From Parelaphostrongylus tenuis (taxonomy: Eukaryota > Nematoda > Chromadorea > Rhabditida > Metastrongylidae), in the NCBI GenBank assembly GCA_019055375.1, contig JAHQIW010007023.1:1-64000 (forward strand): DNA of 64,000 nt, written 5' to 3'. The translations under genes were made by a program, and so were the position numbers. How positions within the stretch are numbered: the first letter of the stretch is position 1; every line of letters starts with the position of its first letter. The notes beneath the pieces are model-generated. The model searched no databases. It saw only the letters and a list, made by a program, of their open reading frames with translations, and was not told the DNA's origin. Below are positions 1-53,400 of the stretch, piece after piece.

Positions 1-180
1 GATGGACCAGTGTCATTGTACACTATGCCATCACCACTTCCACATACGCCTCCCTCCTTGCTACAATGCAGGGCATAATGTGGGGCGGGGGTCACTGATG
101 AGGAGGACGAGCCTCCGAAACACCGGTGTATGGCCCTGGCGTACCAACCTCGTTTTAGGCTAAAAACATTCTTTTTTTTG
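1..180 (+). repeat. Hammerhead-bearing repeat, family A, forward arm
   Basis: This arm recurs inverted at about 960-1140 and again in forward orientation at about 1415-1600. It runs from GATGGACCAGTGTCAT, through a hammerhead core, to an ACCTCGTTTTAGGC/ACATTCTTTTTT tail. The left end is cut by the window edge. The stretch 181-959 between arms contains no exon or further repeat that I can recognise. Confidence 0.8.
88..137 (+). ncRNA. Hammerhead ribozyme (type I, loop-less stem III), family A
   Basis: The core reads CTGATGA (95-101), then stem II GGAGG/CCTCC (102-106 and 112-116, five pairs), then GAAA (117-120). Stem III is the self-complementary ACACCGGTGT (120-129) with no loop. Position 130 (A) is the predicted cleavage nucleotide. 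Stem I pairs GGGTCA (89-94) with TGGCCC (131-136), with one G-U wobble. All invariant core residues are present. Predicted self-cleavage lies between 130 and 131; activity is inferred, not shown. Confidence 0.85.
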
Positions 181-959
181 GATTTGAACTAGATTTAGTA
201 GAATTGACACGATTTCGAACACCTTTTTGGCTTAGAAAAGTTGATCTTTGGTCATGAAGTGCTTCTGATTCCAGATTGTTTAGAGATTCGTTTCAATCAA
301 GCGCCCTTAGGGAATATTGATTGTTCTAATGAATTTCAACTAGTCTGGTTGACGAATTGCATCTCCATCTAGGAAAACAAACTTCATCGATGTGAAAAGT
401 TGCAATCCGTTTTCGAAAAAGTAATATATTTCGGAGACATTGACGTGGAGTAGGGATTGACAGCAAAAACGAATACAAACAAGAAGAAAAGTTGGGTAAA
501 TTCCCAATCTGATGTGATATTAGCTTATGGAGAGCTGAGGAGCAGTCCAACTATCGACTTTATTTCGATATCACTTAAAATGTTGGATAGTCAATTTTTA
601 TCCATTAGGTGAGCTGATAACTATAGTTCTTATTTTGCTTCCACTTTTTTTGTTCGTAAGTAAAATTTTTGTTTTTTTAAGGAATAACGTGGGCGTTCAA
701 ATCTGGTATGATTTCTGTGTTTTTCTGACTGCGTTTAGTATGAGTTTTTTCCATGATATTATTTATTCAAGTAGCTGACAGTTCTACTGTTTCGTCTTCT
801 TCGGAGCCTGGATAGGTCAGGTTGTTGACAACTCACTCAGCCAAACACTTCCATTACTTCATTCGTAAAAATCACCAAACTCAAATTTCAGTCGCGTCAA
901 AGACAAAAAACTAAACTTCAACATACTCACCTCTCTTTAGAAGTCTTTACAAGTCTCAG

Positions 960-1640
960 AAGTTCAAAAAAGAATGTTTGGAGCCTGAACGAGCTTGGTA
1001 CGCCAGGGCCATACACCGGTGTATCGGAGGTTTCGGCCTCCTCGTCAGTGACCGGTTCCCCAGATTAAGCCCTGCATTTTAGCAAGGAGGGAGGCGAATG
1101 TGGTGGTGGAATAGTGTACAATGACACTGGTCCATCACCATTTCTCAGTCGATGAATTTCGGCTGGTAGACCAAAATTAATCCATATGATCGACTGTTTT
1201 CAAAACCTCGTGATAAACATTCTAAATAACTTCAAAAAAGAATGTTTAAAGTTTAAATGAGGTTGGTACGCCAGGGCCATATACCGGTGTTCAGAGGTTT
1301 CGGCCTCCTCGTCAGTGAGGAATTATTCTGAATGTTTATTACGAGGTTTCAAAAGCAGTCGATCATATAGATCTATTTTGGTCTACCAGCCGAAATCTAT
1401 CGAATGAAAAGTGGTGATGGACCAGTGTCATTTACACCATGCCATCACCACATACGCCTCCCTCCTTGCTACAATGCAGGGCTTAATGTGGGGCGGGGTC
1501 ACTGACGAGGAGGCCGAAACCTCCGAAACACCGGTGTATGGCACTGGCGTATCAACCTCGTTTAGGCTTTAAACATTCTTTTTTGGAATTATTTTGAATG
1601 TTTATAACGAGGTTTTGAAAACAGTCGATCATGTGGATTA
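960..1640. repeat. Nested inverted repeats of hammerhead family A
   Basis: This cluster holds at least three family A arms in alternating orientation: inverted at 960-1140, inverted and truncated at about 1235-1320, forward at 1415-1600. An outer palindrome joins 1141-1240 to 1320-1430 (AATTTCGGCTGG... against ...CCAGCCGAAAT) and includes GATCGACTG/CAGTCGATC. Two of the three hammerheads are decayed: about 1005-1054 (minus) reads GATA instead of GAAA, and about 1273-1318 (minus) has lost one A of GAAA. The layout suggests an element inserted into a second copy of itself. Confidence 0.75.
1495..1545 (+). ncRNA. Hammerhead ribozyme, family A
   Basis: CTGACGA (1502-1508), stem II GGAGG/CCTCC (1509-1513 and 1520-1524), GAAA (1525-1528), stem III ACACCGGTGT (1528-1537), cleavage nucleotide A1538. 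Stem I pairs GGGTCA (1496-1501) with TGGCAC (1539-1544), with one wobble and one mismatch. The stem II loop differs from the copy at 88-137 while the stem is kept. Confidence 0.8.
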
Positions 1641-1644
1641 GTCT

Positions 1645-2900
1645 CAGAAGTTTTTAGAAGAAGAATAGAAGTTATCATCTATAATTCCTGTATTTACTGA
1701 AAGTGCACCGCATGATGCGAAGAAATCGGTAGTTCAAACCGCTGGCGCACAGCGCGATTATCGTTATCTTCTTTACAAACTTTTTCTCCCTTCCAAAAAA
1801 TTTCCAGGTTTCTCGCATCATTTTGGTGCTCCATATTTTTGTATATACCCTCTCATTGATGCTAGCTATATACCTCTTAAAACTGAAAAAATTAGAAAGC
1901 AATCAAAAGTTTCTCAAAAATGATACTACACCCTGTATGCTGTGTCACTTCATCGAGAACTTTCAGCAGTTTTAGATTATTTGTGCAGTTCAGGAGTTGG
2001 AACCTGCATAGAATTGTAGAAGAGGCTTTGTTCTATCGACCTATGGGTATTAGCTCCCATTTTCATTATTTACTAAATAAGCTCGCTATGAAGGTCAAGC
2101 AACAAAATAACTACTCTAAGTAGAAAAAATGCCATCTTCTTTTCATTGCAACACCGTAGTGAGAAGGTTCTTTCAGAGCAAAGTAGTCGCAGTCTTTTAA
2201 GCTGTCTAATGATTACTGAAAGCTTAGTAAAAAAGCTTTGCTTAGAGAGAAAGACCTCAAAGTAGTAGTGTATCTCTGAAGATACACGCCTGTCCCGAAT
2301 GGGTTAACATTGATGGCAATGTAATCATTTAGATGATATTAAGAGAAAATTGAGAACACATATAAAACACATTCATATACTAGATGAACAAGCGAACAGC
2401 ATAGTGTTCAGAGGTTATACTGCAATAAACGTTTGGCCGTTGGTGTGATAGCGGTGCCATGTACAAGCAAAGTTCTTCTACGCCTCTGGATTTCACATGT
2501 TAGTTACAGATTTGCCTGGTGAACAAGAATACACTGATCAGACTCATTTGTAAGTTCATACAGATCACCATGTGAGCTAAATTATGATCTAATCATCTTT
2601 ATGGTGCTACAAATGGTGTAGAATACAGGGCGCATCTTTTTCAAATTTCTCATCTCTAAAGCTTCATCCAATGTTTATAAATGAAGATGGATTTTTGCCA
2701 TATATTTGGTAAGCTGCAGAATATACGAAATGTATCTAAGCAAACAAAGGTGCTTCAGTAGCCTTCTTTACTTTTTAGCCCACTCCAAAATTTTCACTGG
2801 TGAATAACTACAAGTTCTACATGAATTCTTTGTTTTCACTGTATTCTGCAATGGTACGATGCTTCGTAGTTCACATCGAAAAGAAGTGCCAGTGAAGCGG
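1645..2900. other. No gene or repeat recognised
   Basis: AT-rich sequence on both strands with only short ORFs. I found no exon-like segment with matching splice signals and no recognisable protein similarity. Confidence 0.4.
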
Positions 2901-2901
2901 T

Positions 2902-2972
2902 GACCTTTATGGTGTAATGGTAGCACGTGCCGCGGTAAGGATGAAATGCTCGTTCAACTCCCGTCTGAGGTC
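2902..2972 (+). repeat. tRNA-like sequence (pseudo-tRNA or SINE head)
   Basis: It has an A-box-like TGGTGTAATGGTAGCACG, a B-box-like GTTCAACTCC and complementary GACC/GGTC ends. The anticodon arm does not fold well. I read it as one of the decayed tRNA-derived repeats common in this window rather than a working tRNA. Confidence 0.5.
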
Positions 2973-52015: not shown

Positions 52016-52159
52016 GGCAAACTTATTATTTGAATACTTATCTGCAATTTGAGAGTTCACAATTTCATCGAGCTGCAAGTTATCAAAAAGCCGACTCGGA
52101 GGTTGTTTATCACAAAAATGAAATTCAAGATATAATGTAAAAAATATGCTATCAGGTTG

Positions 52160-52436
52160 CATTGTATATTAAGCGAGGTTTTAGAAAGAACAGTCGAATA
52201 TAAAGATATCATTCAATTGGCCAGCCATGAGCAATCGACTGTTGACCACTACAGTGTCAAGTGATTTTCTCACTTTAGAGGTAGTGTAGCTAATTCGGCG
52301 TCGATTCGCCTATATGTAGGGGCATATTCCTTTAAGGGGATTGGCTGAACCGAAAAGCACCGTGCTACTGATGAGGCCAAATGGCCGAGACGTACGCCTA
52401 GCACCAAAAAGTGCCATAGCAGACCTCATAAAAGGC
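52160..52436 (+). repeat. Hammerhead family D element; core damaged
   Basis: The plus-strand copy at 52362-52404 has stem I GTGCTA/TAGCAC, CTGATGA, stem II GGCC/GGCC and stem III ACGTACGC, but GAGA replaces GAAA. It is preceded by the family D landmarks ATTCGGCGTCGATTCGCC and AAGGGGATTGGCTGAACCG. Confidence 0.7.
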
Positions 52437-52693
52437 TTAACCCTATCGGGATCGTGGATCCACGGCCTCTGCATCTTTACTGGCAGCTCTTGACGGTCTG
52501 CTCCACCTCTTCTGCATCTCTAGCGCCCACAGTGCTGCGTATAACGATGACAGGCTGTTGCGTCTAGCAGCGACACGCTGCTGCGCCTAACAATGGCACG
52601 CTTGGGTTAGAGATGCAGGGGAGATGGAGCACACCGTCCAGAGTTGCCGGTTAGAGATGCAGAGGCCGTGTCCACGGTCCCGAAAGGGTTAAA
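52437..52693. mobile_element. Fold-back MITE, TTAACCCTATCGGGA ends
   Basis: TTAACCCTATCGGGATCGTGG at the left, CACGGTCCCGAAAGGGTTAA at the right. CACGGCCTCTGCATCTTTA mirrors TTAGAGATGCAGAGGCCGTG, and CTTGACGGTCTGCTCCACCT mirrors GGAGCACACCGTCCAG. It is the longest and clearest member of this family here. Confidence 0.8.
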
Positions 52694-52734
52694 ATACACT
52701 GCCAGGGTGTAGTATCTGTCACTGATCCATACAG

Positions 52735-53035
52735 GTCGTGGATCAAAGCTCTCGGCGTTAAACACTTCCTGCGAGACGTTCCATGCATTCGATTCCATTC
52801 GCACCATCGTTTGGGATGACCGTATGCACATCTGGGCTTTACAATGACTCACGGTGGCTCACAGAGGTATAAGTTCGGTACTGCTGTCTCCGCAGACAAG
52901 TCTGGTAGCAATTCACAGACCTCGGAGTGATGGAAGGCTTGTTGAGCCAGTGGCGTGGGGTTGAAACACTGACCACTGTGTCGCGCGGCACTTCCATAGC
53001 CACTGCGCCGTACCCGGCGTCCTTTGGCCGTGCAT
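52735..53035 (-). repeat. SINE-A copy
   Basis: Minus strand: the head near 53030 (CAGTGGCTATGGAAGTG), then CAGTGTTTCAACCCCACGCC, TTGCTACCAGACTTGTCTG, GAGCCACCGTGAGTCATTG and the tail TTTAACGCCGAGAGCTTTG. Confidence 0.7.
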
Positions 53036-53079
53036 TATTTGTTATGCATTCGGTACGTCACTTCCAGGATGCTCTAAAA

Positions 53080-53400
53080 AATCGATTCTCAGCTAACCGA
53101 AGTCATTCGACTGCTTCGTTACTTCACAGAAGACAGTCTCCTTCAGTTCAGCCGATCCCTTAAGGCTTGACTCCCATAAAGGAATCGACGCCGAACAATT
53201 AATTAGCACAAGAATCACAAGATTCGTCGACTCTCTATAGAAGTACAGCTTCAAGGGATCGGCTGAACCGAAGGAGAAGGAGACTGTACTACTGACGAGT
53301 CGTGAAGGATGAGACGGGCGCCTCTCTAGCACTTATCAGACCTCACAAACGGCTCAAAACATGTTACATCATTATCAGACTCTTCGAACAGTAACTTTTG
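53080..53400. repeat. Decayed hammerhead fold-back element
   Basis: GAAGACAGTCTCCTTCAGTTCAGCCGATCCCTT at the left mirrors AAGGGATCGGCTGAACCGAAGGAGAAGGAGACTGT at the right. The plus-strand ribozyme remnant at about 53287-53331 has CTGACGA but GAGA for GAAA and a damaged stem II. Confidence 0.65.

What the first reader, a model, noticed from the sequence alone, without database searches (positions are those of the whole stretch)
88..53331. A dispersed hammerhead-ribozyme repeat system at high density
Seen: at least ten copies of a full or nearly full hammerhead core (CTGANGA, paired stem II, GAAA, NUH cleavage site) at 88, 1495, 3197, 5142, 5424, 5632, 5810, 20467, 20889 and 32465, on both strands, plus about a dozen decayed copies. 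Known: type I hammerheads with minimal stem III occur in schistosome SINE-like repeats, Penelope-like elements and plant or animal retrozymes. Inference: this genome has an active or recently active hammerhead-carrying element, with one copy per few kb in this window.
Basis: partly seen in the sequence, partly recalled or inferred. Interest (0 to 1): 0.88.

Follow-up and report, generated by a model that had tools for sequence, protein, structure and literature searches.

The report
Self-cutting RNA repeats spread by Penelope
A genome, probably of a roundworm, is full of short repeats that carry a self-cutting RNA (hammerhead ribozyme), and the way many copies sit in the DNA, in mirror-image pairs with fixed ends and duplicated target sites, suggests how they spread: a Penelope-type jumping-gene enzyme copies them into both sides of a DNA break.

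Summary
The hammerheads are real. A strict three-stem descriptor finds 7 copies against 0.02 per shuffled window; a covariance model built from 11 copies finds 23 sites at E<0.01. None reaches Rfam's gathering score in the window; 20 places elsewhere in the genome do.

They form at least four families of short units (A 266, B 281, C 317 bp; E, C-related) resembling metazoan non-LTR retrozymes. Density in 20 stretches placed without regard to hammerheads, 34 hits in 200 kb, extrapolates to roughly 80,000 motifs in 481 Mb.

The new part is insertion anatomy. Neighbouring copies are mostly head-to-head, 3' ends outward: 32 divergent, 5 convergent. Half of these pairs show 10-15 bp target-site duplications. 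5' ends scatter; 3' ends fall mainly at two places, about +40-50 and +90-100 nt after the cleavage site, and 12 of 16 duplication-defined inserts have one end of each kind, 0.4 expected.

This matches Penelope-like elements, whose purified enzyme cuts and extends both strands from two internal start sites. Penelope fragments with a minimal hammerhead are in this genome, one (L038) with the same anatomy.

Penelope mobilisation of retrozymes was only a published candidate. Ribozyme activity and circular RNA remain untested.

The parts
1..177 (+). Family A arm, right arm of an insert that starts before the window; hammerhead 87-139, 3' end about +46 after the cleavage site
762..947 (-). Fragment similar to the terminal region of a Penelope-like element of this genome (about 72-74% identity to L036/L038)
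952..1652 (.). Insert A1: target-site duplication AGTCTCAGAAGTT (952-964 and 1640-1652); minus arm 965-1318 (hammerhead 1003-1056, partial one 1277-1318), plus arm 1319-1639 (hammerhead 1494-1547); 3' ends +47 and +101
3148..3450 (-). Family C copy with hammerhead 3195-3242; duplication weak (7 bp)
5092..5718 (.). Insert B1: duplication TCTTCACTTTA (5092-5102 and 5708-5718); minus arm with two hammerheads (5139-5190, 5421-5473, 282 bp apart), plus arm from 5492 with hammerhead 5630-5682; 3' ends +45 and +34
5733..6237 (.). Insert C1: duplication TGAAATAACAAT/TGAGATAACAAT; minus arm with hammerhead 5807-5854, plus arm 6082-6225 with partial hammerhead 6081-6107; 3' ends +71 and +118 (counted by hand)
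19189..19706 (.). Insert E1: duplication TCTTGTGATT; hammerheads 19246-19293 (minus) and 19533-19580 (plus); 3' ends +56 and +125
20422..21051 (.). Insert B2: duplication GCTTTGATTTGTT (20422-20434 and 21039-21051); hammerheads 20464-20516 and 20747-20801 (minus, second partial), 20887-20939 (plus); 3' ends +38 and +108
32118..32534 (.). Insert C3: duplication AAACAGCATA; hammerhead 32463-32510 (plus), decayed one 32187-32262 (minus, 13.9 bits); right end +23 (counted by hand) fits neither start site
45907..46325 (-). Insert C4, one-armed, hammerhead 45984-46031; 17-bp duplication with one mismatch, in an A-rich run and so weaker evidence
46497..46760 (.). Decayed head-to-head family C copy, hammerhead 46657-46705; no duplication found
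38617..38668 (+). Decayed hammerhead (30.8 bits)
40885..40932 (+). Decayed hammerhead (28.6 bits) inside a palindromic repeat 40515-41051; Rfam's type III model also matches here below its cut-off
52360..52407 (+). Decayed hammerhead (26.9 bits)
12395..12441 (+). Decayed hammerhead (18.6 bits)
53284..53335 (+). Decayed B-like hammerhead (17.8 bits)

Best explanation
These are non-autonomous retrozyme-like elements, probably of a strongylid nematode, copied into DNA by a Penelope-like reverse transcriptase/endonuclease acting in trans. Units of 266-317 nt with a type I hammerhead are transcribed; the RNA is used as an uncut multimer or a re-closed circle, because 59 of 63 family B arms run through the cleavage site (my count). 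The enzyme starts cDNA inside the RNA at one of two sites, in a hairpin loop about 40-50 nt and after an A-rich RCRNTCGA motif about 90-100 nt downstream of the cleavage site. It makes a staggered cut and primes cDNA from both DNA ends; the cDNAs stop at scattered points and are joined 5' to 5', giving a head-to-head insert with two different preferred outer ends and a 10-15 bp duplication; one-armed inserts also occur. Shown: motif, families, orientation, preferred 3' ends, duplications, Penelope fragments in the genome and one Penelope insert (L038) of the same anatomy. Inferred: cleavage, circle, enzyme in trans, two-sided priming.
For: Orientation: 32 divergent, 5 convergent, 16 same-strand neighbours within 700 bp; in the 20 pre-placed stretches 7 divergent, 0 convergent. 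Duplications scoring 11 or more in 12 of 32 divergent pairs against 3.5% of 620 swapped-flank controls. Of 16 pairs with a duplication scoring 10 or more, 12 have one end in each site class (0.38 expected per 32 pairs from 934 swapped pairs), 1 has both in the first class, 3 have an end outside; lengths 10-15, 72% A+T against 60% in the loci. 3' ends of 63 BLAST-defined family B arms: 31 at +30..+60, 26 at +73..+111, 5 below +30, 1 at +239; 5' ends spread from +1 to +274. Hairpin carrying start site 1. Arms of one insert resemble each other more than arms of other inserts (20 pairs, p = 0.001). Penelope RT (PF00078, E 9.2e-9) and GIY-YIG (PF01541, E 0.011, below its cut-off) pieces, similar to Angiostrongylus, Ancylostoma, Haemonchus and Necator proteins; minimal Penelope-type hammerhead pattern, 5 matches in 347 kb, 0 in two controls; a head-to-head Penelope insert in L038 with a 12-bp duplication, one mismatch. 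Literature parallels.
Against: No in vivo or in vitro data. B1 has two site-1 ends; C3's right end and L013's left end fit neither site; 16 of 32 divergent pairs have no duplication scoring 10 or more (age and other causes not separated). In 4 of 20 pairs the partner arm was less similar than most other arms, and B2's two tandem pieces are only 94% alike. No insert joining a Penelope arm to a retrozyme arm was found: the one candidate, L016, looks like a one-armed array nested in a Penelope RT stretch. L030, a head-to-head Penelope pair, gave no duplication at the threshold. Minimum-energy folds of isolated copies do not show the full hammerhead. No intact Penelope gene was seen; the genome-wide search for one did not complete. 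In the Anolis element the hammerhead was dispensable for insertion in vitro.
Confidence: 0.8

Rival explanations
1. Penelope-mobilised, but the inverted arm arises by self-priming or fold-back of one cDNA (or an antisense template), not by priming at both DNA ends.
For: Proposed for Penelope head-to-head structures in a rotifer (passages of PMC3846280); arms of one insert resemble each other.
Against: Fold-back would leave one outer end at a start site and the other anywhere; here both outer ends usually fall at start sites and at different ones. The purified Anolis enzyme extends both strands.
Confidence: 0.13
2. A DNA transposon relic (MITE or foldback element) whose terminal inverted repeats happen to contain a hammerhead.
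For: Inverted arms flanked by short direct repeats.
Against: Duplication length varies from 10 to 15 bp; the two outer ends lie at different unit positions; arms differ in length and one (L016) holds about 2.8 tandem units; 5' ends are scattered.
Confidence: 0.03
3. A SINE-like element moved by a LINE, with inversions made by twin priming.
For: Target-primed features: preferred 3' ends, variable 5' ends, variable duplications.
Against: Twin priming inverts the 5' part and does not put an RNA 3' start site on both outer ends (established knowledge, recalled); two start sites and a tail between them are described for Penelope elements.
Confidence: 0.04

Closest known systems
Metazoan non-LTR retrozymes (Cervera and de la Pena 2020, PMC7229834; abstract, discussion and passages seen)
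   Same: Type I hammerhead in roughly 150-450 bp units, tandem copies, low G+C (here 44-45%), co-occurrence with Penelope-like elements.
   Different: Described as direct tandem repeats; the words 'inverted' and 'nematode' do not occur in that main text. Here neighbouring copies are mostly head-to-head, with duplications and two preferred 3' ends. Circular RNA not shown here.
Penelope-like elements and their pseudo-LTRs (PMC11167929 main text read; PMC3846280 passages)
   Same: Head-to-head repeats, 8-10 bp duplications in the rotifer, optional 30-40 bp tail on one of the inverted repeats, hammerhead, two internal start sites, A+T-rich targets.
   Different: The repeats here are too short to code for RT or endonuclease; their hammerheads have a palindromic stem III of 8-12 nt instead of the minimal ACGT form; spacing between start sites about 50 rather than 30-40 nt.
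Schistosoma hammerhead repeats (W-elements, PMC8490949; passages seen)
   Same: Type I hammerheads in short repeats of a parasitic worm.
   Different: Satellite-like elements of a flatworm; one possible duplication case mentioned in the passages seen.

Membership tests
Type I hammerhead ribozyme | Conserved core with three stems, stem I open-ended, NUH cleavage site | tested here: met
Type I hammerhead ribozyme | RF00163 at or above gathering score | tested here: inconclusive
   0 sites in the window; 20 of 31 listed matches in the genome
Type I hammerhead ribozyme | Self-cleavage | not testable with these tools
   needs a transcription assay
Metazoan non-LTR retrozyme | 150-450 bp units with a type I hammerhead, low G+C | tested here: met
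   266, 281, 317 bp; G+C 0.44-0.45
Metazoan non-LTR retrozyme | Tandem dimers or longer | tested here: met
   16 same-strand neighbours within 700 bp, 12 of them 282-342 bp apart; many inserts hold less than two units
Metazoan non-LTR retrozyme | Expressed as circular RNA | not testable with these tools
   no RNA data
Penelope-like element | RT and GIY-YIG coding region in the element | tested here: not met
   units of 266-317 bp are too short; so they are not Penelope elements themselves
Penelope-like element | Head-to-head termini with optional tail and target-site duplication | tested here: met
   in part of the copies
MITE / DNA transposon | Fixed-length duplication and matching terminal inverted repeats | tested here: not met
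   lengths 10-15, unequal ends

The most novel reading that the evidence does not exclude
Animal retrozymes are inserted by two-sided target-primed reverse transcription on a Penelope ribonucleoprotein: the two DNA ends prime on a closed or multimeric hammerhead RNA, each at a different one of two built-in start sites, so that the hammerhead's role is to supply a template that can be read through its own cleavage site.
Probability: 0.45. Interest if true: 0.85.

Novelty: new variant of a known kind. Interest (0 to 1): 0.72.

Why it matters
How animal retrozymes move has been open; the paper that described them in animals gave Penelope-like elements only as a strong candidate, on shared hammerheads, tandem copies and co-occurrence. 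By extrapolation this genome holds tens of thousands of natural copies with readable start sites, duplications and joints, which turns that into a testable claim, and the one-end-each pattern constrains how Penelope enzymes integrate. It also puts retrozyme-like repeats, probably, in a nematode at very high density; in the held papers my searches listed no report of that.

Tried and rejected
Chance: rejected by shuffles and covariation. Rfam type III match at 40835 (32.4 bits, cut-off 48.5): set aside, the same place holds a decayed type I copy. MITE: rejected on variable duplication length and unequal ends. tRNA-bearing inverted repeats in the window show the same outward 3' orientation and were suspected of using the same machinery, but no direct repeat of 8 bp or more scoring 7 or more was found at the 3 tested, so they were dropped. 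Hybrid insert of retrozyme and Penelope arms: one candidate (L016) looked, by eye, like a one-armed array nested in a Penelope RT stretch with duplication ACAAATTAGAGG. Linear self-cleaved monomer as main template: disfavoured, since 1 of 63 family B arms begins at +1 and no short arm from +1 to a start site was seen; 3 short arms begin at +33 to +52 and end at the second site class. Covariation within the family B hairpin: none (0 of 18 pairs with two-sided change); support for the hairpin is conservation plus a similar layout in families A and C read by eye. Duplication search at L030's head-to-head Penelope pair: nothing at the threshold. Genome-wide counts with the covariance model and a search for an intact Penelope gene were planned and not obtained.
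Full report
What was checked. The named relatives that I saw of a Penelope-type protein stretch found in it come from Angiostrongylus, Ancylostoma, Haemonchus, Necator, Heligmosomoides and Nippostrongylus (192 proteins, 120 listed, many unnamed); all are strongylid nematodes (recalled), so I take the organism to be one. This is inference from a mobile element, not from a host gene.

The ribozymes. A strict three-stem descriptor finds 7 copies, 0.02 per shuffle. Eleven aligned copies (9 distinct) show 23 two-sided changes against 7.5 in shuffles, with two-sided changes in all three stems; two of the five measures are not clearly above shuffles. 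Stem III is palindromic in each family (ACAC/GTGT, ACACC/GGTGT, ATAGGC/GCCTAT, from the sequence), which recalls the dimer-forming small hammerheads of Penelope elements (recalled; the 2017 and 2014 papers on these are not held). A model from these copies finds 23 sites at E<0.01 in the window and 34 (all at 20.9 bits or more, E 0.0025 or less) in 20 stretches of 10 kb at round-number positions on six contigs. All six contigs hold an RF00163 match, none of them inside the stretches. At that rate the genome would hold about 82,000 motifs, Poisson range near 57,000-114,000; the contigs were not chosen at random, so this is rough. Rfam scores none of the window's copies above its cut-off.

The families. 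Self-comparison and unit mapping give A (266 bp), B (281 bp) and C (317 bp), each with direct and inverted copies, plus E, related to C. The three units of the array in L016 are 97-99% alike, and the two B1 pieces 98%, where full units of different loci are 79-97% alike; but the two B2 pieces are only 94% alike.

The anatomy. In the window, 7 of 9 tested loci have flanking direct repeats scoring 9 or more, one of them (C4) A-rich, against 7 of 300 random pairs. Across window and fetched loci, 32 neighbours diverge, 5 converge and 16 are on the same strand; the convergent pair in the window is two separate inserts, B1 and C1, each with its own duplication. L001-L028 had been picked because they hold strong hammerheads; in the pre-placed stretches alone divergent to convergent is 7 to 0. 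Duplications scoring 11 or more occur in 12 of 32 divergent pairs, 3.5% in swapped-flank controls. Of 16 pairs with a duplication scoring 10 or more, 12 have one end at +30..75 and the other at +85..130, 1 has both in the first class, 3 have an end outside. Two of these three (L002, L027) look, by eye, like the element's own sequence rather than duplications. The other 16 of 32 pairs show no such duplication. Of 63 family B arms, 62 end 3' within +18..+111, a third of the unit; 5' ends are scattered. For family C the picture is similar but noisier: of 42 arms, 11 end at +60..81 and 17 at +110..128, with 7 below +30 and 7 above +160.

The start sites. Family B RNA downstream of the cleavage site folds as AGACC..GCTCAAAA / TTTTGAGC.GGTCT with the first 3' end class in the loop. 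Families A and C show a similar layout, and A, B and C share an A-rich stretch and RCRNTCGA just before the second class (by eye). In B, AGACC could pair either in the outer part of stem I or in this hairpin; whether that is a switch is speculation.

The link to Penelope. Frangieh et al. 2024 (PMC11167929, main text read) found that a purified Penelope enzyme cuts and extends both strands, with reverse transcription starting at two internal sites whose interval is the 30-40 nt tail; the hammerhead cut is 26 and the start 111-118 nt into the ORF, hence 85-92 nt downstream of the cut. They saw no difference in start site between the two strands, and the hammerhead was not needed. Arkhipova et al. 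2013 (PMC3846280, passages) describe head-to-head pseudo-LTRs, 8-10 bp duplications (not in every insert) and a tail on one of the inverted repeats. In this genome Penelope endonuclease-like pieces occur in 4 of the 20 pre-placed stretches (L030, L036, L038, L046). Four of the five minimal-hammerhead matches have a stem II of 4 bp, one of 2. L038 is a head-to-head insert with ends at +64 and +104 (counted by hand) and a 12-bp duplication with one mismatch. Window 762-947 resembles the terminal region of such an element.

What is inferred. That the nematode's Penelope protein does the work, that both DNA ends are primed, that the RNA is circular or multimeric, and that the hammerhead cleaves. 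Arms of one insert being more alike than arms of others (20 pairs, one locus counted twice; 4 of 20 the other way) fits a shared template but also a shared source locus.

Against known work. Cervera and de la Pena 2020 (PMC7229834; abstract, discussion and passages) name Penelope elements a strong candidate for moving animal retrozymes. The words inverted and nematode do not occur in that main text. Eight searches of the held library (I saw listings, and passages of a few papers) listed no paper on two-ended, head-to-head retrozyme inserts or on nematode retrozymes; supplements and most subscription journals were not searched.

Noticed in passing
window 22123-23076 and 26538-27490: Two 954-bp direct repeats, 99.6% identical, flank gag-like (DUF1759), protease (DUF1758) and DUF5641 coding: a recent Bel/Pao-type LTR retrotransposon (type recalled); the two reading frames scanned gave no RT match.
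   Followed up: partly
window 44389-44646, 51057-51313, 51671-52025: tRNA-bearing inverted repeats whose tRNA 3' halves and tails point outward, like the hammerhead inserts, but without a detectable target duplication at the three tested; related copies near 59.3 and 63.7 kb.
   Followed up: partly
window 9087-9329 and 33576-33800: Tc1/mariner-like transposase pieces (HTH matches at 9087 below cut-off; the label for 33576 is recalled and had no Pfam match).
   Followed up: no
L030 6107-6231: Rfam's MIR2084 model matches both strands of a stretch overlapping a family B hammerhead at 44.7 and 42.2 bits (cut-off 100).
   Followed up: no
window 10013-10059, 50694-50745, 36361-36604: Further repeats with some similarity to family A; the first two have CTGATGA...GCCGAAA cores and score only 10-11 bits with the model: perhaps an older, diverged family.
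   Followed up: no
L003 and L004 (contig C821): Two inserts with equal scores 19 kb apart in opposite orientation on one contig, possibly an inverted segmental duplication.
   Followed up: no
window about 37.1-45 kb, plus strand: Exon-like stretches that read to me like succinyl-CoA:3-ketoacid CoA transferase (recalled; Pfam scans of three pieces gave no such match).
   Followed up: partly
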